A DNA stretch of 64,000 nucleotides from Agromyces mangrovi (GTDB lineage Bacteria > Actinomycetota > Actinomycetes > Actinomycetales > Microbacteriaceae), in assembly GCF_030296695.1 (NCBI RefSeq), contig NZ_AP027737.1, forward strand, positions 2,356,001 to 2,420,000. Reading direction: 5' to 3'. The translations under genes and the position numbers were made by a program. This document shows positions 18,308 to 30,615 of the stretch, in pieces. The notes beneath the pieces are model-generated. The model searched no databases and had not been told where the DNA came from. It worked only from the letters and a program-made list of their open reading frames with translations. Within the stretch, counting starts at the first letter, position 1. Each line of letters starts with the position of its first letter.

Positions 18308-21167
18308 GAGCGCCCCCACGACTCGGCGAGCTGCGGTGCGCCCGCCAGCTCGAGCGCGACCCGGGCGGCACCCGCGGGCAGCAGGTCGTCGACGTCGGCC
18401 GGGTCGTCGCACGCGACGATCAGGGTGAGCGGATGCCCCGTGCGGGCCTCCGCCCCGCGCCGCGCGTCGTCCAGCACGGCGCGCAGCCCGTCGCGCGCGG
18501 CCGGGTCGGCCACCCCGTCGACGCCGTCGAGCGCCACGACGACCGCGTCGCCGTCGAGGGCCGTGCGCAGCGCCGCGACCGGGTCGTCGCCGACCAGCTC
18601 GGCCACCGACGACCGCCCGCGCACCGACGCCGCCCGCGTCGGCAGCACGAGGTCGGCCACCTTGCAGCGCCCCTCGGCGATGCCCAGCCGACCGGTGAGC
18701 GCGAGCAGGAGATCCGTGCGTGAGGCGGGGCTCCCCCGGAGACGACGAGCACGTCGCCCGCGGGCACGCGGAGGTCGAGCGCGTCGGCCTCCAGAGGCAT
18801 CCGCTCGTGTCGGCACCCCTCGGCCGCGATTGCGAGCCGGTCGCCGGGCTCGGGCCACGACGCCAGCTCGTCCTCCTTCGTGAGCCCCTCGCCCTCGACG
18901 TCGAACGACGGCAGCACCCGGTCGAGCCACGCCGGCAGCCACCAGGCGTGCCGGCCGAAGGCCATGAGCACGGCAGGGATCAGGGTCATGCGCACGATGA
19001 ACGCGTCGATCGCGACGCCCACCGCGAGCCCGAACGCGATCGGCTGCATCGACGCCTCGCCGTTCAGGATGAACCCGCCGAACACGCTCGTCATGATGAT
19101 CGCGGCGGCCGTGACCACGCGGGCCGACGCGTGGAAGCCGCGCTCGACGGCGGGCCTGGGCTCGTGGTGATGCACCCAGTCCTCGCGCATGCGGCTGACG
19201 AGGAACACCTCGTAGTCCATCGCGAGCCCGAACAGCACACCCATCACGATGATCGGCATGAAGCTCGTCACCGACCCGACCGACTCGACGTTCAGGGGGC
19301 CCGCGAGGAACCCGTCGACGAACACGAGACTGGTCAGGCCGAACGCCGCGCCGATCGACAGCGCGTAGCCGAGCGCGGCCGTCACCGGCACCACGACGGA
19401 GCGGAACACCATCGCGAGCAGCACGAGCGAGAGCCCCACGACGAGCAGCCCGAACGGCAGCATCGAGGCGCCGAGCCGCTCGGAGATGTCGATGCCGAGC
19501 GCCGTGTAGCCCGTGACCGCGAGCGACACGGCGTACTGCTCGACGAAGTGGTCGTGCAGGCCGCGCAACCGCTGCACCAGCTGCTCGGTCTCGGCCGAGT
19601 CGGGCGCGCCGGTCGGGATCACCTGGATCACCGCGGTGTCGCCGGTCTCGTTCGGGGTCGACAGGGGCACGGATGCCACGCCGGGCACGTCCGCCACCTC
19701 GGCGGCGATGTCGTTCACCAGCGTGACCGGGTCGGTCGACTGGATGACCGAGCCGGTGAGGATGAGCGGCCCGTTCGCACCCGCACCGAAGTGCTCGGCG
19801 ATGAGGTCGTAGGTCACGCGGCCGGGGGAGCCCTCGGGCAGGGACCCCGAGTCGGGCAGTGCGAGCCGCAGCCCGAGCGCAGGGAACGCGGCGAGGGCGA
19901 GCAGCCCGGTCACGAGCACGATCGTCACCGGCGGCCACTTCGTGACGGCGCGCACCCAGTGGCCGAAGAAGCCGCCGGGGCGGGTGGCGGATGCCTCGGG
20001 CTCGGCGTCGTCGGCGGGGGTGTCGTCGGGCGTCGCGGTGTGGTTCGCCGTGCCGGGGGAGTCCGCCGGCTCAGGGGCATCCGTTTCGCTGTCACCTTCG
20101 CTCGCGTCTGCGTCGGGCGCGTGCTTGTGGCCGGGCCGGTCGCGCCGGCGGAGGACGCGCCAGCCGGCGAAGCCGAGCAGCGCCGGGGTGAGGGTGAGCG
20201 CGACCGCCGCGGCTGCGGCGACCGCGAGCCCGGCGGAGATGCCGGTGACGGTGAGGAACGGGATCTGCGCGACCGAGAGGCCGAGCAGCGCGATGATGAC
20301 CGTGGTGGCGGCGAACGCGACGGCAGAGCCGGCGGTCGCGACCGCGCGCGGGGCGGACTCCTCGGGCGGGATGCCGTGCTTCAGCTGGTCCTGGTGGCGG
20401 CTCACGATGAACAGCGCGTAGTCGACGCCGACCGCGAGGCCGAGCATGACCGCGAGCAGCGGCGCGGTCGACGTGACCGTCACCCATTGGGTGCCCGTGA
20501 GCACGATCGCGACCGCGACGCCGACCCCGGTGATGGCGGTGACCAGCGGCATGCCGGCGGCGACCAGCGAGCCGAACGTCAGCAGCAGCACGACCAGCGC
20601 GATGAGCAGGCTCGTCAGCTCGCTGATGCCGATGCCGGGGTCGACCTGCGAGTACAGCGCGCCGCCGACCGCGACCTTCGAGCCGTCGGGGAGCGCCTGC
20701 TGCAGCGTGGTGCCCGCGGACTGGAGTGCGTCGGAGGTCGACGGGTCGACCGCCGTCGCGACGACCGAGAGCTGGATCGGCACGAGCACCGCGGAGTCGT
20801 CGCTCGCGATGTTCGCGGTCGACGTACCGCCGTACGGGTCGGTCGCGCCCGAGACCTGCGGGATCGCCTCGATGGCGGTGACGGCGTCTTCCACCGCCTG
20901 CTGGAAGTCGGCGTCGGTGACGCTGCCGCCGTCGGGCGCGACCGCGACCAGCTGCGCCGACGTGCCCGAGAACTGCGGGAACGTGCGCGAGAGCGAGTCG
21001 AGCGCGTCCTGCGACTGCGTGCCGGGGAAGGCGTACGTGTTGTCGGTGCCGACGCCGACGAGCCAGGCGATGCCGAGCAGCGCGGCCAGCACGAGCGCCC
21101 AGCCCACGACCACGAGCCGCCGGGCGTGGTAGGCCCAACGGCCGAGTGCGAACAGGGCTGCGGACAC
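18304..21167 (-). CDS. MMPL-family transporter with C-terminal ATPase-like domain (frameshifted)
   Basis: 954 residues after correction. Two RND repeats are evident: first membrane block from residue 14, GVDYALFIVSRHQDQLKHG, then GLAMDYEVFLVSRMREDW in the second, each with the Asp-Tyr pair of the MmpL proton relay. A 60-residue acidic linker separates the halves. The C-terminal 200 residues (LRVPAGDVLVVSGG, LLLALTGRL, VALDGVDG) resemble a degenerate ABC-type nucleotide-binding domain. The frame breaks at the CCCCC run 18731-18735 (plus strand); one more base restores reading to a TGA at 18304. It likely exports lipids or hydrophobic compounds. GTG 21167 is the start. Confidence 0.85.
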
Positions 21168-21260: not shown

Positions 21261-22280
21261 TCAGGAGCAGGGGAACCACTCGGCCGCCCGATCGGCGGCG
21301 TCGCGGTAGCGCGCGAACCGATCGCGCACGTCGGCGATCGCGTCGGCGAGCGGGAAGATCTCGCGCCGAACGAACAGCGAGTCGTCGATCGCCGCGACCG
21401 GGTGCCACCACACACCGTCGGCCGTGATCGTGACCTCGGGCACGAGCGACGCGGCCGTGAACTCGATGCCCTCCTCGGCGACCCCCTGGTGTGCGATGGC
21501 GCGGATCACGCGGTGCTCCGGCCGGATGCCGAGGTCGCCGAGGAAGTCGACGAACGGGGCCACCTCGTGGGCCTGCTCTGCCGGCAGCGTCGCGGCCACC
21601 TTGACGCCGAACCCCTCGTCGAGGGCGAGGCGGATGCCGGCGACGGCCCGTTCCCACGCGCGCGGCCCGCGGTGCGCGTCGTGCTGGTGCGGCGTGGCCG
21701 AGTCGAGGCTGATCTGCAGCATGAGCCGGTCGCGATCCATGCGTCGCAGGCGCTCGAGGCGCTCGCCGCGGAAGAGCATGCCATTGGTCAGCAGCGTCGT
21801 CGGCAGCCGGGCGGTGCACGATGCCACGAGATCGTCGATGTCGGGCAGGAGGAACGGCTCGCCGCCGGTGAGGATGAGCTCGCGCACCCCCGCGTCGACC
21901 GCCTCGGCTGCCAGGCGGTCGACCCGGTCGGCGCCCAGTGCCCGCCGGTCGGTCTGCGGCGACGAGGCCACGCAGCAGTAGTCGCAGTGCAGGTTGCAGT
22001 CGAAGTTCGTGTACATCCAGAGGCGGGTGCCGGGCAGGAGTTCCGGGTCGAGCGAGGCGAGCGGATCGCGCCGCCGGCCGTGCCGCACCACGACCGCGTC
22101 GGGTCGTACCTCGACGAGTTCGTTGCCGCTCGAGCGGCACCACGCCGCGACCAGGTCGGTGTTCGCCGCCACCTCTGCGGCGTCCGCGGCGCCCGCCGAG
22201 ACGTCGAGTTCGACCGGGTGGCCCGCCGGAGTTCCGGCGAGCCGCTCGACCAGGTCGAGGATGAGCGAGTGGTTCACCAT
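21261..22280 (-). CDS. radical SAM protein with TusA-like N-terminal region
   Basis: 339 residues, last gene of a five-gene operon. The radical SAM site is CNLHCDYC (CxxxCxxC) at about residues 103-110, followed by ELILTGGEPFLLPDI and DRLMLQISLDS. No second cysteine cluster (SPASM or twitch) is apparent. The first 75 residues include LVAAWCRSSGNELVEV, close to the second half of TusA-type sulfur carriers (DIPxWCxxxGHxL), but without the TusA CPxP cysteine. ATG 22280 overlaps the upstream stop by seven bases. It should be a cytoplasmic Fe-S enzyme cleaving SAM; the substrate is unknown. Confidence 0.82.
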   Translation of the reverse strand: MVNHSLILDLVERLAGTPAGHPVELDVSAGAADAAEVAANTDLVAAWCRSSGNELVEVRPDAVVVRHGRRRDPLASLDPELLPGTRLWMYTNFDCNLHCDYCCVASSPQTDRRALGADRVDRLAAEAVDAGVRELILTGGEPFLLPDIDDLVASCTARLPTTLLTNGMLFRGERLERLRRMDRDRLMLQISLDSATPHQHDAHRGPRAWERAVAGIRLALDEGFGVKVAATLPAEQAHEVAPFVDFLGDLGIRPEHRVIRAIAHQGVAEEGIEFTAASLVPEVTITADGVWWHPVAAIDDSLFVRREIFPLADAIADVRDRFARYRDAADRAAEWFPCS

Positions 22281-23110
22281 CGAGCCGGGATCCCCTGTTC
22301 CGCCACCGCCGCGAACAGGCCGGCGTACCCGTCGAGGTTCGGTGGCACCCACGCGCGGAGGCCCTCGAGCTCGAGGATCTCGCGGTGCTCCGGCCGATCC
22401 CACTCCATGGCCATGAGGTTCGCGACCCACGCCTCGGCGCGGTCGTCGGCGAGCGCGGGCATCGCCGTGAACGTGCAGTGGCTGTACTCGGGTGAGGTCC
22501 AGAACGCCTCGAGGGCACCGGCCATCACGTCGCCGCGCGCGACCGACTCCCACGTGTTGATGCCGATCGCCGCCGCATCCGCCCGGTCGTCGAGCACGGC
22601 CCGCATCGCGTCGAGTTCGCTGCGCCCGGTGTCGCCGTGCTTGCCGACATCGCTGTCGATGCGGAGGAACTCGACCTCGTCGTCGGGGATGCCCGCCTCG
22701 CGCAGGTAGTGCACGGGAAGGATCGCCGCCTGGGCGGAGTCCCGTGACCCCAGCGCGAGTCGGCGGCCCCGCGTCGCACCGATGCCGTCGTATCCCGCGC
22801 CTGCGCGCGAGACGAACACGGTGCGGAACACCAGGTCGGTGTCGCGCGATGCGAGCGCGCGACACGCGCCGTCGGTCTGCGCGACCGTGCGCACGTACGC
22901 AAGGTTCGTGTTCCACGCGATATCGACATGGCCCGCGACCAGGCTGTCGACGAGCCGCCCGTAGTTCGAGTAGAGCACGAAGTCGATCGGGGTGCCGGTC
23001 GTGGAGAAGTAGTCGCGCAGGCCCTCCCAGATCGTGACGACGTTGGGGGTGTACGCGACCGAGCCGATGACGAGCGGCGTCGGCGTCGTGGCATCCGCTT
23101 CGCTCGTCAT
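22274..23110 (-). CDS. PhnD/SsuA-type substrate-binding protein without signal peptide
   Basis: 278 residues with the periplasmic-binding-protein pattern of the PhnD/NMT1 family: LVIGSVAYTPNVVTIWEGLRDYF, FVLYSNYGRLVDSLVAGHVDIAWN, GRRLALGSRDSAQAAILP, and AAAIGINTWESVARG. The N-terminus (MTSEADATTPTP) has no hydrophobic segment or lipobox and no permease or ATPase gene is adjacent, so the protein is probably cytoplasmic and acts as an enzyme or ligand-binding partner of its operon rather than an importer. ATG 23110 overlaps the stop of the acyl-CoA-dehydrogenase-like gene by four bases. Confidence 0.8.
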   Translation of the reverse strand: MTSEADATTPTPLVIGSVAYTPNVVTIWEGLRDYFSTTGTPIDFVLYSNYGRLVDSLVAGHVDIAWNTNLAYVRTVAQTDGACRALASRDTDLVFRTVFVSRAGAGYDGIGATRGRRLALGSRDSAQAAILPVHYLREAGIPDDEVEFLRIDSDVGKHGDTGRSELDAMRAVLDDRADAAAIGINTWESVARGDVMAGALEAFWTSPEYSHCTFTAMPALADDRAEAWVANLMAMEWDRPEHREILELEGLRAWVPPNLDGYAGLFAAVAEQGIPARW

Positions 23111-24273
23111 GCTGCGGCCTCGCCGCCGGCCTTCGCGGGCTCTGCGTCGGCGGGCGGATCGAAGAGCGGACGCCCCGTGATGGCGCGGCCGTAGAACTCG
23201 TAGAGCGCGTCGGCGGTCGGCGCCATGACGTGCCCGGCGCGGGCGTCGCGGAAGTAGCGGTCGATCGACAGGTGCTGTGAGAACGCCGCCCCGCCGCAGA
23301 CCCGCATTGCCGCGTCGGTGATCCGCAGCGCCGCGTCGTTCGACGCGGCCTTGCTGCCCAGCACGAACAGCGGCGTGTCCTCCTCGGGTGAGGCGACCTT
23401 GCCGGCGGCCCTGTCGAGGTAGGCGGATGCCGCGGCGAGCTCGATCGACATGCGCGCGAGCTGCGCGCGGATCGTCGGCAGCGCCGAGAGCGTCTGGTCG
23501 AGGTGCTGCAGGCGGGCGCCGGTCGTGTGGCGGATCGCCGCGTCGACGGATGCGCGGCTCAGCCCCAGGGAGACGGCGGCGTTGCCGAGGTTGAACCACG
23601 GCAGCACGACACCCAGCATGAGGTCCGTGCCCGCGCCGACCTCGCCGAGCCGGATGGAGTCGTCGAGGTCGACGTCGTAGGTCATCGGGCTCGACGCGTT
23701 GCCGCGGAAGCCCATGCCCGACCACGGCTGGTCGATGGTCACCCCGGGGGTGTCCGATGCGAGCGCGTAGAGGTCGACGCCCGTGCCGTCGGGGGTCTTC
23801 GCCGAGCTCACGTAGACGTCGGCGTACCCGGCCGAGGTGACCCAGCTCTTCTGCGCGACGACGTGCAGGCGCCCGTCGACCTCCTTCGGCTGGGAGACCG
23901 GCGACCAGAAGTGCGAGCGTGAGCCCTTCTCCGAGAACGCGAGTGTGCCGAGCGTACGACCCGACGCCATGTCTGCGAGCAGGTCCGGCATGGCGGACGG
24001 CACGGCCTGCGACAGCGGCGCGACGGCGGCGAAGTGCATGAGCGTGATCATCGCGGTCGAGCCGCAGGCGCCTGCGATCTCGCCGAGCACGTCGACGAGC
24101 TCCTGCGGCCCTCCGCCAAGGCCGCCGACCTCCGGTGGCAGGGTCAGCCCCATGAGGCCCGAGTCGCGCAGCGCCTGCACGGCCTCGTCGGGGAAGCGTC
24201 CGCGCTGGTCGACGTCGGTGGCGTGCTCGCGAGCGATCGCGAGCATCGGGTCGAGCCGGTCGTGCAGGTCCAT
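23107..24273 (-). CDS. acyl-CoA dehydrogenase-fold flavoenzyme
   Basis: 388 residues with the acyl-CoA dehydrogenase fold: GLTLPPEVGGLGGGPQEL, LAFSEKGSRSHFWSPVSQ, the middle beta domain (AQKSWVTSAGYADVYV, PWSGMGFRGNAS) and a C-terminal helical domain with LRITDAAMRVCGGAAFSQ. The EKGSRSHFWSPVS region is reminiscent of the DszC/SfnB group of FMN-dependent monooxygenases that act on organosulfur compounds, not of fatty-acid dehydrogenases. ATG 24273 follows GAGAGGG. Substrate is not determined; operon context (DoxX-like, TusA-like, PhnD-like) leans toward sulfur chemistry. Confidence 0.82.
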   Translation of the reverse strand: MDLHDRLDPMLAIAREHATDVDQRGRFPDEAVQALRDSGLMGLTLPPEVGGLGGGPQELVDVLGEIAGACGSTAMITLMHFAAVAPLSQAVPSAMPDLLADMASGRTLGTLAFSEKGSRSHFWSPVSQPKEVDGRLHVVAQKSWVTSAGYADVYVSSAKTPDGTGVDLYALASDTPGVTIDQPWSGMGFRGNASSPMTYDVDLDDSIRLGEVGAGTDLMLGVVLPWFNLGNAAVSLGLSRASVDAAIRHTTGARLQHLDQTLSALPTIRAQLARMSIELAAASAYLDRAAGKVASPEEDTPLFVLGSKAASNDAALRITDAAMRVCGGAAFSQHLSIDRYFRDARAGHVMAPTADALYEFYGRAITGRPLFDPPADAEPAKAGGEAAA

Positions 24274-24313
24274 CGGTATCCCTCTCGGTCGTCGGTGTTG
24301 CGGGAGTCGCGGT

Positions 24314-24736
24314 TCAGGTGGTGCGGTCGGATGCCCCGGGGTCGGGCGTCTCGGGATCGCGCAGCGAGCGACGGGCGAGCGCGACCGCCAGCAGCCCGAT
24401 GCCGAATCCGCCGAAGGCGGCCATCGCGGAGGCGTCGCGGCCGAGCAGTCCGGGCGCCAGGTGCAGCGTGGCGAGCTGCACGAGTGCGGCAAGCGTGAGG
24501 CCGGCGCCGGCGATCCAGGTCAGCGCGGGCCGGTGGAACTCCCCGCCGAGCACCGCGAGCACGCCGAACACGACGAGCACGACGGCGCCCCAGAGGCCCA
24601 CGCGAACGAACTGGGCCTCGGTCGGCAGGCCGGCCCCGAACACGTACAGTGCGACGAGCGCGCTGGCCGCGCCGAGCACCGCGGCTGCGCGGTCCAGGCG
24701 CGGCAGCTGAGCGCGTGCGAACTCGGCGTCGCTCAT
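24314..24736 (-). CDS. small four-helix membrane protein
   Basis: 140 residues with four hydrophobic segments (around residues 17-37, 45-65, 72-95 and 105-122) and polar ends. I do not recognise a named family. It is translationally coupled to the DoxX-like gene (ATGA overlap at 24733-24736) and lies 40 bases before the acyl-CoA-dehydrogenase-like gene, so it is a membrane component of the same operon, perhaps a partner subunit of the DoxX-like protein. Confidence 0.65.
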   Translation of the reverse strand: MSDAEFARAQLPRLDRAAAVLGAASALVALYVFGAGLPTEAQFVRVGLWGAVVLVVFGVLAVLGGEFHRPALTWIAGAGLTLAALVQLATLHLAPGLLGRDASAMAAFGGFGIGLLAVALARRSLRDPETPDPGASDRTT

Positions 24737-25272
24737 GACAGACTCCGCATCGTCCGGGCGAATCGGGTCTCCGAGCGCAGCCAGATCGGGCGCAGGACGC
24801 CGTCGACGCCGTAGCAGCGACCCGCGGCCACCGCGAACAGCGCGAGGTGCGCGAGGAACATGAGGTAGTAGGCCCAGTGCCACTCGTGTGGCGCGTTCAG
24901 CACCGACAGAAGGATCGCGACCGTCTGCGCCATGCCGACCACCGCCCAGAGCCGCGTCGCCAGACCGACGAGCAGGAACGCGCCGAGGCCGCCCTCGACG
25001 AGCAGGATGATCCAACCGACGAACTCGATGTTCGGCAGGAAGACCGTCTCGACGAACCAGGAGTACGGTGCGAGCACCGGGAACTCGACCGCCTGCCCGG
25101 CCCAGAAGTAGAGCCCGTTGTCGGCGGCTCGACCGAAGTCGAGGGGGCGCTTCCAGGCGACGTTCTGGATCCACATGAGGGCCACGCCGACGCGGACCAC
25201 GGCGATGAGCGTGCGCGACACCGGAGACTCCAGCGGGTTCGCCGGAACGTCGGCCCCGACCGCGGTCATCAT
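24733..25272 (-). CDS. DoxX/DoxD-like membrane protein
   Basis: 179 residues, first gene of the operon. Segments VVRVGVALMWIQNVAWKRP, PNIEFVGWIILLVEGGLGAFLLVG, and LSVLNAPHEWHWAYYLMFLAHLALFAVAAG give the DoxX four-helix pattern. DoxX/DoxD proteins include the membrane subunit of thiosulfate:quinone oxidoreductase and integral components of redox stress complexes. The NAPHEWxWAY motif is typical of actinobacterial members. A 97-base gap to the next minus-strand gene upstream holds the presumed promoter. Confidence 0.82.
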   Translation of the reverse strand: MMTAVGADVPANPLESPVSRTLIAVVRVGVALMWIQNVAWKRPLDFGRAADNGLYFWAGQAVEFPVLAPYSWFVETVFLPNIEFVGWIILLVEGGLGAFLLVGLATRLWAVVGMAQTVAILLSVLNAPHEWHWAYYLMFLAHLALFAVAAGRCYGVDGVLRPIWLRSETRFARTMRSLS

Positions 25273-28076: not shown

Positions 28077-28874
28077 ATGAGCGCAGCGTTCCCCGGCATG
28101 ACCGAGATGCCCGAACCGCAGTACGTCATGAGCGTGAACGGGCGGCGCCTCGCCACCTACCTGTGGGGGCCCGAGGACGGGCCGGTCGTGCTGTGCGTGC
28201 ACGGGTTCGCGTCGAGCTGCCGCGACAACTGGGTGAGCACCGGATGGGTGCGCGACCTCACGCGCGCCGGGTTCCGCGTGCTCGGCGTCGACCAGCGCGG
28301 GCACGGGGCGAGCGACAAGCCGTACGAGTACCGGGCGTACGACATGGACCGACTGGTCGAGGACCTCGACACCGTGCTCGACACGTACCTCCTCGACTCC
28401 GTCCTGTACGTCGGCTACTCGCTCGGCGCCCGCGTCGGCTGGCAGTTCGCGGTCGCGCACCCCGAGCGGGTCGAGCGCGCGGTGCTCGGCGGCATCCCCG
28501 ACGGGCGGCCGCTCGCCCGGCTGCAGATCGAGCAGGCGAGGGCGTACGCCGAGTCGGGCACGCCGGTGGAGGACAAGGTCACGCACAACTACGTCACCCT
28601 CGCGGAGCGGGTGCCCGGCAACGACCTGCGCGCTCTCGTCGCGCTCGCCGAGGGCATGCGGCACGGGCAGGCCGACCCCGACCCCGACGACCCGCCGCAG
28701 CAGCCGATCCTCTTCGCGACCGGCAGCGAGGACGCCATCCTCGAGCGCTCGCGCGCGCTCGCCGAGGCGACGCCCGCGGGCACGTTCGTCGAGCTGGCCG
28801 GCCGCCACCACTTCAACGCGCCCGGGTCGCGCGACTTCCGCCGCGCCGCCGTGGAGTTCCTCTCCGCGGAGTAG
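28077..28874 (+). CDS. alpha/beta hydrolase
   Basis: 265 residues with the alpha/beta hydrolase core: VVLCVHGFASS (oxyanion region), VDQRGHGASDKP, the nucleophile elbow VGYSLGARVGW, an Asp in ILFATGSEDAI and the final His in LAGRHHFNAP. The nucleophile position reads GYSLG (Ser). No signal peptide is present. The ATG at 28077 lacks a clear ribosome binding site; ATG 28098 is an alternative. The family includes esterases, lactonases and epoxide hydrolases, so the reaction is not assigned. Confidence 0.82.
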   Translation: MSAAFPGMTEMPEPQYVMSVNGRRLATYLWGPEDGPVVLCVHGFASSCRDNWVSTGWVRDLTRAGFRVLGVDQRGHGASDKPYEYRAYDMDRLVEDLDTVLDTYLLDSVLYVGYSLGARVGWQFAVAHPERVERAVLGGIPDGRPLARLQIEQARAYAESGTPVEDKVTHNYVTLAERVPGNDLRALVALAEGMRHGQADPDPDDPPQQPILFATGSEDAILERSRALAEATPAGTFVELAGRHHFNAPGSRDFRRAAVEFLSAE

Positions 28875-28897
28875 CGCGCGTGCCAGGGGAGGGTGCC

Positions 28898-29767
28898 GTG
28901 GGGTTCGACGTTCGGGAGTTCGCGCGCTCGGCGCAGGGGAGCCTGCGCGGGGAGCTCGACCTCGAGGCGTTCGCGGCGCACCCGCTTCCGCCGGCGGTGT
29001 CCGACGGCGTCGGCGTGCTCGGTCGACTCGAGGGCGCGACCATGGACGTGCTGCGCAACGTGCTGGTCACCGCGACGCACAAGGACGCGCGCGTCACCGC
29101 GTTCCTCGTGACCTGGGCGTACGAGCGGTTCTGGGTGGCCGACGCGTACGCGGCGATCGCGGCGGCATGCGGGCGGTCGGCGGGGGATGGGGCGGCGGCG
29201 TCGCGCGGGCCCGGGCCGGTGCGGCGCGCGTTCGCGGGGTTCGTGCAGGGACGGGCGATCGTGGGCGCGCACCTCGCCGCGCTGCTCGTCGACGACGTCG
29301 TGCTGGGCGCGATCGCCGCGCGGCTGGTCGAGGCGGCGCGTGCGGGGCAGGACGCCGTGGGCCGAGCGAACGGCGACGGCGGCGCGGGTGGGGCGGATGC
29401 GGCGACCGAGGCGTTCGCCACCGCGGTCGAGCGCGTCGGGCGCATCACGGCGAGACACGACGCGTTCCTGCGCGAGGAGGTCGCCGCGCGGCTGCGCGAC
29501 GACCGGCGGGCGCGGCGGCTCGCGGCACGCGAGCTGCGGCGGTGGCCCCTGCCGCTCGGGTCGGGCGCCGTCACGGCGCGCGAGCGCGACGCGCTGCTCG
29601 CGCTCGCGTTCGGCGGGGACGGCGGCCGGGAGGCGGCGGCGGCCGTGGTCGCCGAGGTCGGCACGGTGCCGGGGCTCGACGCGACGGCACGGGTCGTGGC
29701 GACACGGCTGGGTGCGACATGGCTGGGTGCGGCGACCACGGGTGCGGACGCGACGCACGCGACCTAG
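28898..29767 (+). CDS. degenerate ferritin-like paralog of the next gene
   Basis: 289 residues from GTG 28898 (AGGGGAGGG upstream). The first 90 residues align with the product of the next gene: FDVREFARSAQ vs FDIDRYTATSV, then LDLEAFAAHPLPP vs LDLDAFASDPLPP, then DARVTAFLVTWAYERFW vs EADVSAFMTMWNREEFW. However the metal-ligand pattern is broken: the EExxH of the paralog reads ERxxV here and the later ExxRH reads TxxRH. It probably lost the diiron site and may be a regulatory or structural partner. Much of the second half is Ala/Arg-rich helix. Confidence 0.6.
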   Translation: MGFDVREFARSAQGSLRGELDLEAFAAHPLPPAVSDGVGVLGRLEGATMDVLRNVLVTATHKDARVTAFLVTWAYERFWVADAYAAIAAACGRSAGDGAAASRGPGPVRRAFAGFVQGRAIVGAHLAALLVDDVVLGAIAARLVEAARAGQDAVGRANGDGGAGGADAATEAFATAVERVGRITARHDAFLREEVAARLRDDRRARRLAARELRRWPLPLGSGAVTARERDALLALAFGGDGGREAAAAVVAEVGTVPGLDATARVVATRLGATWLGAATTGADATHAT

Positions 29768-29820: not shown

Positions 29821-30615
29821 GTGGCCTTCGACATCGATCGCTACACCGCGACGTCGGTGCGGGTCGAGTGGGACGACCTCGACCTCGACGCATTCGCGAG
29901 CGATCCGCTGCCGCCCGAGTCGCTGCGCACGCTGCGGTACATGACCGACGTCGAGTACCACACGGTCTGCTACACGCGCGACCTGCTGACGACGCCGTCG
30001 CACCGAGAGGCCGACGTGAGCGCGTTCATGACCATGTGGAACCGCGAGGAGTTCTGGCACGGCGAGGCGCTCGCCGCGGTGCTCGCGCGGCACGGCGTCA
30101 CGGTCGACTACGACGAATTGCGGGCCAAGCGCGTGAAGCTCGGCTGGAAGGACCGCATCGACCCGATCAAGCAGTCCGTCGCCGGGGCGCTCGTCGGCGC
30201 CGACTTCGTGGCGGTGCACATGTCGTGGGGCGCGGCGAACGAGTGGTCGGCGATCACGGCGTACCAGCGCATGGCGGAGCTCGAGCAGCATCCGGTGCTC
30301 GCGGAGCTGCTGCGGCGCATCGCGAAGCAGGAGGCCCGGCACGTGGCGTTCTACACCTCGCAGGCGAGGCAGCGGCTCGCCGCGAGCAGGCGCGCGCAGC
30401 AGGTGACGCGGTTCGCGCTGCAACGGTTCTGGGCGCCGGTCGGGTCGAGCATCATGCGTGAGGACGAGGTGCGGCACGTCATGGGCCAGCTCATGGCCGG
30501 GCCCGAGGGGCGGCGGGCGGCGCGCAAGGTCGACGACTCGATCAGCGCGATGCCCGGCCTCGGTGGCCTCACGATCGTGCAGGACGCGCTCGACCGCCTC
30601 GGCGTGGCTGCGTAG
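29821..30615 (+). CDS. ferritin-like diiron protein (acyl-ACP desaturase-like)
   Basis: 264 residues from GTG 29821 (GGGGAGG upstream). The helical bundle carries a complete set of carboxylate and His ligands: VEYHTVCYTRDLL near residue 45, NREEFWHGEAL near 75 (EExxH), NEWSAITAYQRM near 145 and KQEARHVAFYTSQ near 180 (ExxH). This ligand pattern is that of ferritin-like oxidases and acyl-ACP desaturases; some mycobacterial desaturase-like proteins have this size. It should be a soluble O2-activating enzyme. Substrate unknown; the upstream gene is a ligand-poor paralog in the same transcript. Confidence 0.75.
   Translation: MAFDIDRYTATSVRVEWDDLDLDAFASDPLPPESLRTLRYMTDVEYHTVCYTRDLLTTPSHREADVSAFMTMWNREEFWHGEALAAVLARHGVTVDYDELRAKRVKLGWKDRIDPIKQSVAGALVGADFVAVHMSWGAANEWSAITAYQRMAELEQHPVLAELLRRIAKQEARHVAFYTSQARQRLAASRRAQQVTRFALQRFWAPVGSSIMREDEVRHVMGQLMAGPEGRRAARKVDDSISAMPGLGGLTIVQDALDRLGVAA

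What the first reader, a model, noticed from the sequence alone, without database searches (positions are those of the whole stretch)
21261..25272. Five-gene operon with sulfur-related features and no known pathway
DoxX/DoxD-like membrane protein, small four-helix membrane protein, acyl-CoA-dehydrogenase-fold enzyme with a DszC/SfnB-like EKGSRSHFW segment, PhnD/SsuA-type binding protein without signal peptide, and a radical SAM enzyme with a TusA-like N-terminal part. Most adjacent pairs overlap by four or seven bases. Each part has a link to sulfur chemistry in known families, yet I know of no described system with this set. It may handle an organosulfur or related small compound in the cytoplasm. 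This is the best candidate for an undescribed system in the window.
Basis: partly seen in the sequence, partly recalled or inferred. Interest (0 to 1): 0.75.

Follow-up and report, generated by a model that had tools for sequence, protein, structure and literature searches.

The report
Unsolved Rv1678-Rv1681-type enzyme operon
A five-gene operon in a soil-type actinobacterium is the counterpart of an unsolved tuberculosis-bacterium operon (Rv1678-Rv1681), and gene neighbourhoods suggest that it helps to process an unusual sulfur-bearing sugar.

Summary
The operon is real and complete. It is not unnamed: four of the five proteins pass NCBIfam cut-offs for the Mycobacterium tuberculosis families Rv1678 (C-terminal half), Rv1679, Rv1680 and Rv1681. 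My searches found no described function.

Across 66 loci it resolves into two sub-modules: a flavoprotein of acyl-CoA-dehydrogenase fold, lacking that family's catalytic Glu, with a binding-protein-fold partner; and radical SAM with DoxD and a membrane protein. Beside the binding protein lies one of three enzymes, never two: TusA-like/radical SAM (31), TusA-like/R2lox-like diiron (13) or MetE-like (4).

The best clue lies outside the window. A methylthioadenosine phosphorylase lies within 20 kb of the binding-protein gene in 10 of 26 genomes (0.33 expected). Of 12 radical-SAM-type genomes 11 carry a phosphorylase/TIGR04282 cluster resembling the methylthioxylose genes of mycobacterial lipoarabinomannan.

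Best reading: the operon handles a methylthio-pentose derived from methylthioadenosine. The reaction is not shown. Against it: 17 of 111 operon-negative genomes carry that cluster too, and in the window's own genome the two loci lie 1.78 Mb apart.

The parts
24733..25272 (-). gene 1: DoxD-like membrane protein, 179 aa; counterpart of the N-terminal half of Rv1678
   Evidence: PF04173 29.9 bits over cut-off 22.7; 41% identity over 154 aa to the N-terminal half of the 302-aa Rv1678-like protein of Mycobacterium simulans
24314..24736 (-). gene 2: small membrane protein, 140 aa; counterpart of the C-terminal half of Rv1678; overlaps gene 1 by 4 bases
   Evidence: NCBIfam memb_Rv1678_C 96.8 bits, cut-off 50; in M. 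simulans the same model matches residues 212-294 of the 302-aa protein; direct BLASTP to that protein gave nothing usable
23107..24273 (-). gene 3: flavoprotein of acyl-CoA-dehydrogenase fold, Rv1679/FadE16 family, 388 aa
   Evidence: Rv1679_FadE16 651 bits, cut-off 600
23215..23226 (-). codons for M350-A351-P352-T353, where ordinary acyl-CoA dehydrogenases have Y-E-G-T with the catalytic Glu
   Evidence: profile alignment to solved dehydrogenases; M350 and P352 invariant in 25 aligned sequences, A351 and T353 at 90% or more
22274..23110 (-). gene 4: binding-protein-fold (PhnD-like) protein without export-type start, Rv1680 family, 278 aa; overlaps gene 3 by 4 bases
   Evidence: SBP_like_Rv1680 487 bits, cut-off 400; AlphaFold2 pLDDT 92.5; Foldseek best hits PhnD, PtxB, ArrX
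22736..22750 (-). codons for G121-S-R-D-S125, aligned to the G-S-x-S-S-T-S stretch of the PhnD-like protein 7s6g; only the first Ser of STS is kept
   Evidence: profile alignment; G121 and S125 invariant in 42 sequences
22475..22480 (-). codons for H211-C212, nearly invariant (90% or more) in 42 aligned Rv1680-like sequences
21261..22280 (-). gene 5: radical SAM protein, Rv1681 ('MoeX') family, 339 aa; overlaps gene 4 by 7 bases (4 from GTG 22277)
   Evidence: radical_Rv1681 514 bits, cut-off 380; Radical_SAM PF04055
22074..22265 (-). TusA-like N-terminal domain of gene 5 (about residues 6-69), without the CPxP cysteine
   Evidence: HHalign against a TusA profile 96.4%, E 1.4e-9
21975..21998 (-). 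codons for C95-x3-C99-x2-C102 of the radical SAM core (followed by invariant C103)
   Evidence: invariant in 26 aligned sequences
21267..21269 (-). codon for C338, invariant cysteine one residue before the C-terminus of gene 5
   Evidence: invariant in 26 aligned sequences

Best explanation
Shown: this is the Rv1678-Rv1681 operon, with Rv1678 as two overlapping genes. Shown by comparison: it joins two separable sub-modules, [flavoprotein + binding-protein-fold partner] and [radical SAM + DoxD + small membrane protein]. Inferred: the module works in the cytoplasm on a 5-deoxy-5-methylthio-pentose (phosphate) that methylthioadenosine phosphorylase releases from methylthioadenosine. The PhnD-like protein holds the (phospho)sugar; the flavoprotein, which lacks the acyl-CoA-dehydrogenase base, does a flavin redox or oxygenation step on it (S-oxygenation is one option); the radical SAM enzyme does a C-H step, for instance inversion from ribo to xylo with an invariant cysteine as hydrogen donor; the DoxD/membrane pair anchors the radical SAM enzyme or links it to quinones. 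The product would pass to polyprenyl-phosphate glycosyltransferases of MtxS/MtxT type. Which of these steps happens is not shown.
For: Identity. Module structure: 66 loci, recounted (flavoprotein gene beside the binding-protein gene in 47; third gene rSAM 31, diiron 13, MetE-like 4, none of the three 18). DoxD lies with an rSAM relative also where no flavoprotein or binding-protein gene was found (L098-L101) and in 0 of 13 diiron loci. Linkage: a phosphorylase match within 20 kb of the binding-protein gene in 10 of 26 genomes, 0.33 expected; 7 of 18 genera. TIGR04282 within 20 kb in 8 of the 22 genomes that have it, 0.23 expected. Clusters uniting the operon with phosphorylase, epimerase, GT2 and TIGR04282 in L143, L151/L136, L152 and L154. 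Phosphorylase-TIGR04282 pair within 10 kb in 11 of 12 rSAM-type genomes against 0 of 11 diiron-type and 17 of 111 operon-negative class genomes. The window's own genome has phosphorylase, epimerase, GT2 and TIGR04282 together. MTX starts from methylthioadenosine and is added by a GT-C enzyme from a decaprenyl-P donor (PMC11127046 passage); MtxS = Rv0539, MtxT = Rv0541c (PMC8780516 passage). The binding protein's fold is that of P/As-oxyanion binders (one hit is GpxB with G1P).
Against: 17 of 111 operon-negative class genomes carry the phosphorylase-TIGR04282 pair, so the operon is not needed for such a cluster. In 16 of 26 genomes the phosphorylase was not found within 20 kb, the window's own included (1.78 Mb). 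None of 11 diiron-type genomes shows the pair, though 3 of them, one genus, have the phosphorylase 4.7-6.6 kb away; several of the 11 are in many contigs, so a linkage could be hidden. The phosphate-binding STS motif is mostly lost in the binding protein. In Acidimicrobiia the binding protein sits by KatG and a luciferase-like enzyme, in Polyangium without any of the partners. No ligand, reaction or phenotype was tested. The 20-kb and 10-kb limits were set after seeing the data and related genomes are not independent. NCBIfam's name for TIGR04282 is 'arsenosugar', not MTX; TIGR04282 alone is in 46 of 112 class genomes of the sample apart from six with the operon.
Confidence: 0.4

Rival explanations
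1. Cytoplasmic organosulfur assimilation: a sulfonate-, sulfinate- or sulfone-like compound is held by the binding protein and opened by the flavoprotein acting as a monooxygenase; DoxD takes electrons from a sulfur intermediate.
For: DoxD family; weak SfnB (96 bits) and SsuA (16 bits) matches; luciferase-like enzyme near the binding protein in Acidimicrobiia.
Against: SfnB and DszC far below cut-off and no better than CoA dehydrogenases; binding protein nearest to P/As-oxyanion binders; explains neither the phosphorylase and glycosyltransferase linkage nor the radical SAM step.
Confidence: 0.15
2. A 5'-deoxyadenosyl-transfer pathway like arsenosugar or futalosine biosynthesis: the radical SAM enzyme adds 5'-deoxyadenosyl to a small acceptor held by the binding protein (an arsenical or an enol acid), and the phosphorylase then removes adenine.
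For: TIGR04282/TIGR04283 'arsenosugar' proteins near relatives; ArrX and AioX among the best folds and a nearly invariant His-Cys pair; MqnA/MqnD are binding-protein-fold enzymes working with radical SAM enzymes and a nucleosidase (recalled).
Against: ArsS-family scores of relatives (35-49 bits, cut-off 300) are no better than for many other radical SAM families; no methyltransferase in the window operon; the linked genes match the MTX set (as recalled) at least as well.
Confidence: 0.15
3. The flavoprotein-binding-protein pair is a general oxidative supplier for sulfur/one-carbon chemistry, e.g. it releases a methyl or methylthio unit that the MetE-like partner turns into methionine; the rSAM and diiron partners use the same unit differently.
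For: MetE-like partner keeps the Zn and homocysteine residues by eye (residues as given in PMC7857596, passages); 0 of 4 such genomes have a MetE N-terminal domain over cut-off and 3 of 4 lack the MetH activation domain.
Against: Three of the four are metagenome assemblies of unstated completeness, the fourth has the MetH domain; other methionine synthase types were not searched; rSAM-type loci have no such partner.
Confidence: 0.1
4. The old annotations are literally right: fatty-acid beta-oxidation (FadE16), phosphonate uptake (Rv1680), molybdopterin synthesis (MoeX).
For: Superfamily membership only.
Against: Catalytic Glu of acyl-CoA dehydrogenases absent; binding protein without export-type start and with the STS phosphonate motif mostly lost; MoaA score 72 against cut-off 284.
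Confidence: 0.03

Closest known systems
Mycobacterium tuberculosis Rv1678-Rv1679(fadE16)-Rv1680-Rv1681(moeX), NCBIfam NF049986/NF049984/NF049985/NF049973
   Same: Four of five proteins over the family cut-offs; same order as in the M. simulans locus L062
   Different: Rv1678 is one fused protein in M. simulans, two overlapping genes here; the redoxin-like and thioredoxin-like genes upstream in M. simulans are not upstream here. The M. tuberculosis locus itself was not fetched.
Methylthioxylose (MTX) cap pathway of M. tuberculosis lipoarabinomannan (MtxS Rv0539, MtxT Rv0541c)
   Same: Genes of its type (MTA phosphorylase, GT2, epimerase, TIGR04282; partly recalled) are united with or near the operon in several actinobacteria
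   Different: The window operon is not mentioned in the MTX passages that I read; the original paper (Angala 2017) was not held
PhnD/PtxB/ArrX/AioX binding proteins
   Different: No export-type start by eye; STS oxyanion motif reduced to one Ser; nearly invariant His-Cys
SfnB/DszC flavin monooxygenases and acyl-CoA dehydrogenases
   Same: Acyl-CoA dehydrogenase domains
   Different: Far below SfnB/DszC cut-offs; catalytic Glu of acyl-CoA dehydrogenases replaced
R2-like ligand-binding oxidase / VlmB diiron enzymes, in the alternative partner
   Same: E/EXXH/E/EXXH ligands in 13 of 13; profile and fold matches
   Different: Carries a TusA-like domain in front; model of moderate confidence (pLDDT 76)
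MesD/MesX oxygen-dependent methionine synthesis
   Same: A core MetE with a redox partner (passages of PMC7857596)
   Different: Partner is the flavoprotein pair, not DUF1852; applies only to the MetE-like variant

Membership tests
Rv1678-Rv1681 operon | proteins over NCBIfam cut-offs | tested here: met
   four of five over cut-off; the DoxD half is not covered by an Rv1678 model
Rv1678-Rv1681 operon | gene order DoxD/memb-FadE16-Rv1680-Rv1681 | tested here: met
   same order in M. simulans L062 and in 26 of 31 rSAM-type loci; exceptions L033, L142, L143 (DoxD downstream), L056 and L061 (no FadE16 beside)
acyl-CoA dehydrogenase (enzyme) | catalytic Glu in the YEGT loop | tested here: not met
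   MAPT at that place; that this Glu is the base is recalled
SfnB / DszC | NCBIfam cut-off | tested here: not met
   96 of 430.9 and 45.7 of 850 bits
PhnD/SsuA transport binding protein | fold | tested here: met
PhnD/SsuA transport binding protein | phosphonate-binding Ser-Thr-Ser motif | tested here: not met
   S-A-Q in its place; role of the motif recalled
PhnD/SsuA transport binding protein | signal peptide | tested here: inconclusive
   none seen by eye in the window protein; no predictor run; the Planctomycetia homologue L074 has a hydrophobic start
TusA | profile similarity | tested here: met
   HHalign 96.4% for the rSAM N-terminus
TusA | CPxP cysteine | tested here: not met
   absent in the window protein and in the other alignment rows printed (up to 14 per set)
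radical SAM | CxxxCxxC | tested here: met
   invariant in 26 sequences
MoaA/MoeX (molybdopterin) | MoaA cut-off | tested here: not met
   72.1 of 284 bits
MTX-type pathway | linkage to MTA phosphorylase | tested here: inconclusive
   10 of 26 genomes linked, the window's own not
MTX-type pathway | substrate is a methylthio-pentose | not testable with these tools
   needs biochemistry
arsenosugar pathway | ArsS-family radical SAM | tested here: not met
   ArsS not among the 25 best families shown for the window protein (the 25th at 42 bits); relatives 35-49 bits of cut-off 300

The most novel reading that the evidence does not exclude
A new kind of sugar-tailoring module: a former transport binding protein, now cytoplasmic, serves as substrate-holding subunit (or catalyst) of a flavoenzyme, and the next enzyme is exchangeable, radical SAM or R2lox-like diiron behind the same TusA-like docking domain. 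In actinobacteria it shapes a methylthio-pentose made from methylthioadenosine, and the M. tuberculosis copy (Rv1678-Rv1681) contributes to the methylthioxylose cap of lipoarabinomannan or its sulfoxide (the sulfoxide is recalled).
Probability: 0.25. Interest if true: 0.85.

Novelty: new variant of a known kind. Interest (0 to 1): 0.6.

Why it matters
Rv1678-Rv1681 are mycobacterial proteins with no function that I could find in print; one is labelled a molybdopterin enzyme (passages), another a putative phosphonate transporter part. I recall Rv1681 as a urinary tuberculosis marker; only lists diagnostics papers that mention it. A concrete, testable link to methylthio-sugar chemistry would replace misleading annotations. 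The exchange of a radical SAM enzyme for a diiron oxidase behind one docking domain, around an unusual flavoprotein/binding-protein pair, is a clean case for studying how oxygen-dependent and radical enzymes replace each other.

Tried and rejected
Rejected or led nowhere: tRNA/tmRNA and Rfam scans of the window (0 and 0). Literature for a function of the set: no paper with three or more of Rv1678-Rv1681/fadE16/moeX; of the 17 papers with Rv1680 or Rv1681 I read passages in 2, of the 82 with Rv1678/Rv1679/fadE16/moeX (40 listed, many false hits on 'moex') passages in 2: they gave 'putative phosphonate transporter component', an efflux-gene list, proximity to PacL1 and drug-resistance GWAS notes. 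A family-composition search and a locus-tag search found nothing. Cmr activates rv1676 next to dsbF (passages); this says nothing on Rv1678-81. Arsenic was my first reading of the TIGR04282 link; I demoted it when the linked set (phosphorylase, epimerase, GT2) matched the MTX genes that I recall. The diiron gene of L146 was first missed (note 4) and found by profiles. TIGR04282 alone is a weak marker: 52 of 118 class genomes have it, 6 of them with the operon. Direct BLASTP of gene 2 to fused Rv1678 found nothing usable; the link rests on NCBIfam. For the tree I dropped 8 of 66 loci (repeats of a genome or near-relative, or partial contigs: L138, L141, L068, L144, L077, L084, L059, L046); it has long branches and shows the label clustered, not independent gains. 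The co-occurrence p-values treat related genomes as independent and I do not lean on them. Families not listed by VIA-align are not thereby excluded.
Full report
Check of the observation. The window is positions 2,356,001-2,420,000 of a single-contig 3.61-Mb genome; the nearest other homologue of gene 4 is from Agromyces rhizosphaerae at 91% identity, so the organism is most likely an Agromyces. The five genes lie head to tail on the minus strand at the coordinates given. Three junctions overlap by 4, 4 and 7 bases (the last by 4 from the alternative GTG); genes 2 and 3 are 40 bases apart. Genes 3, 4 and 5 match their family models from end to end.

What the genes are. NCBIfam identifies them: memb_Rv1678_C, Rv1679_FadE16, SBP_like_Rv1680 and radical_Rv1681 all pass their cut-offs; gene 1 is DoxD by Pfam. 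In Mycobacterium simulans the first two are one 302-aa protein: gene 1 aligns to its N-terminal half at 41% and the memb_Rv1678_C model matches its residues 212-294. So the window holds the Rv1678-Rv1681 operon with Rv1678 split in two. I found no paper that describes a function for it. In print, as passages: 'putative phosphonate transporter component' for Rv1680 (PMC8562490), proximity of MoeX to PacL1 (PMC13043812), a drug-resistance association of moeX (PMC6440112), and Cmr activation of the upstream rv1676 (PMC5499769).

The parts tested. The flavoprotein has the domains of acyl-CoA dehydrogenases, but where those carry the catalytic Glu (YEGT) this family has MAPT. It is not closer to DszC or SfnB than to CoA-dehydrogenase-type families. 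The binding protein was modelled at pLDDT 92.5; its nearest solved folds are PhnD, PtxB, ArrX and AioX, from entries with phosphate, phosphite, methylphosphonate, arsenate or arsenite bound. Only one residue of the Ser-Thr-Ser motif is left, and a His-Cys pair is nearly invariant. The radical SAM protein has the CxxxCxxC motif, an extra invariant cysteine right after it and another one residue before its end; its N-terminal part is TusA-like by HHalign (96.4%) but lacks the CPxP cysteine.

Two sub-modules and an exchangeable partner. Profiles for the partners were run on them (recount). The flavoprotein gene lies beside the binding-protein gene in 47 of 66; of 31 radical-SAM-type loci 2 (L056, L061) lack it. 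The third gene is the Rv1681-type radical SAM in 31, a protein that I call C7 in 13 (behind the pair in 11, in front of it in L034 and L037), a MetE-like protein in 4, and none of these in 18 (10 Acidimicrobiia with KatG and/or a luciferase-like enzyme nearby, 5 Polyangium loci and one Planctomycetia with none of the partners, and L042 and L043 with the flavoprotein pair only). No locus has two of the three. C7 has a TusA-like N-terminus (HHalign 98.2%; solved TusA structures matched by its profile) in front of a diiron domain with all six ligand residues in 13 of 13 and R2lox/RNR-R2/VlmB relatives by profile and fold (model pLDDT only 76). On a tree of 59 binding proteins (window included, 8 loci dropped) the radical SAM type is one side of a branch (SH-aLRT 100), the MetE-like type another (97), and C7 needs three changes; seven changes in all against 29.4 with shuffled labels. 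This looks like an early TusA-like/diiron partner replaced once by TusA-like/radical SAM, but near-copies inflate such statistics. DoxD goes with the radical SAM gene, not with the pair: 0 of 13 C7 loci have it in the stretch held, while four other loci (L098-L101) have a shorter radical SAM relative beside DoxD, with no flavoprotein or binding-protein gene found in the stretch (the small membrane protein confirmed by NCBIfam in L101, the only one submitted).

The functional clue. In several actinobacteria the operon is united with genes for methylthioadenosine phosphorylase, an epimerase, a GT2 glycosyltransferase and a TIGR04282 protein: L143, L151/L136, L152 and L154; L153 has phosphorylase, GT2 and TIGR04282 about 12 kb from DoxD. 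A further long protein of this set (L143, L151, L153, L154, and G150) had no Pfam match where tested; I take it for the GT-C type from its look and place. In 26 genomes with gene 4 homologues, a phosphorylase match lies within 20 kb on the same contig in 10 (0.33 expected from genome sizes; 7 of 18 genera), and TIGR04282 within 20 kb in 8 of the 22 that have it (0.23 expected). The pair phosphorylase-TIGR04282 within 10 kb occurs in 11 of 12 radical-SAM-type genomes (the twelfth, G300, is in 970 contigs), in 0 of 11 C7-type genomes (4 of which show no TIGR04282 and several of which are in many contigs), in 1 of the 3 others (G227), and in 17 of 111 class genomes without the operon (that these lack it rests, and the count 111 assumes that the C7-type genome G334 is in the sample). 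The window's genome has GT2, TIGR04282, phosphorylase and epimerase within about 7 kb, but 1.78 Mb from the operon. In the mycobacterium-like genome G150 the operon lies 13 kb from the phosphorylase, which sits beside menA-like and fabH-like genes as I recall for Rv0533c-Rv0535 of M. tuberculosis (gene names by eye and recall).

What that set is. The methylthioxylose (MTX) cap of M. tuberculosis lipoarabinomannan is made from methylthioadenosine and added by a GT-C enzyme from a decaprenyl-phosphate donor (passage of PMC11127046); MtxS is Rv0539 and MtxT Rv0541c (passage of PMC8780516). That Rv0535-Rv0541c hold phosphorylase, epimerase, GT2, DUF2064 and the GT-C is recalled; the primary paper was not held, nor did I align to the M. 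tuberculosis proteins. NCBIfam calls TIGR04282 an arsenosugar protein, which keeps that rival alive.

Interpretation. The economical reading is that the operon processes a methylthio-pentose. A phosphate-binding fold for a sugar phosphate, a flavoenzyme able to oxygenate or oxidise, and a radical SAM enzyme with an invariant cysteine near its end would fit S-oxygenation and/or the ribo-to-xylo inversion, but neither is shown. Because clusters of the MTX type also occur without the operon, it would be a tailoring addition rather than a core step, or those clusters make something else. The MetE-like variant hints that the flavoprotein pair itself serves sulfur/one-carbon chemistry: 0 of its 4 genomes has a MetE N-terminal domain over cut-off and 3 of 4 lack the MetH activation domain, though three are assemblies of unstated completeness.

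Verdict. Observation confirmed; interpretation partly supported. The operon is a member of named families of unknown function, with a split first gene. What I have not found in print (searches; an open-licence library only) is the two-module structure, the radical SAM/diiron exchange and the linkage to methylthio-sugar genes.

Noticed in passing
window 29821-30615 (+): Ferritin-like protein with a KQEARH motif (rubrerythrin match just below cut-off), preceded by an apparent relative (by eye) in the ORF at 28163-29767 with no Pfam match.
   Followed up: partly
window 18420-21167 (-): MMPL-family transporter whose longest ORF starts 93 bases downstream of the operon on the same strand.
   Followed up: partly
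L041, L071, L072, L073: Binding protein (with flavoprotein in 3 of 4) beside a core MetE-like protein; 0 of 4 genomes have a MetE N-terminal domain over cut-off and 3 of 4 lack the MetH activation domain. Possibly a further folate-independent methionine synthase system.
   Followed up: partly
L093-L096: Metallophosphoesterase-like N-terminus (by eye) in one frame with an Rv1681-like radical SAM domain (about 560-680 aa), near TIGR04283 (L093) and an MTA-phosphorylase-like gene (L095).
   Followed up: partly
L098-L101: Rv1681-like radical SAM protein beside DoxD, with an AhpD/peroxidase-like neighbour in L098 (profile) and L099, L101 (by eye), without flavoprotein or binding protein.
   Followed up: partly
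L075-L084: Acidimicrobiia: a divergent Rv1680-like protein directly between KatG and a luciferase-like (F420-type) oxidoreductase in 6 of 10 loci, near one or both in the others.
   Followed up: no
L045, L050: Cryobacterium: a TIGR04282-like protein follows the radical SAM gene (12 bases between them in L050); in L050 it scores 106 bits, cut-off 134.
   Followed up: partly
L061, L056: Lolliginicoccus and an Amycolatopsis assembly have binding protein and radical SAM but no flavoprotein gene found beside them.
   Followed up: no
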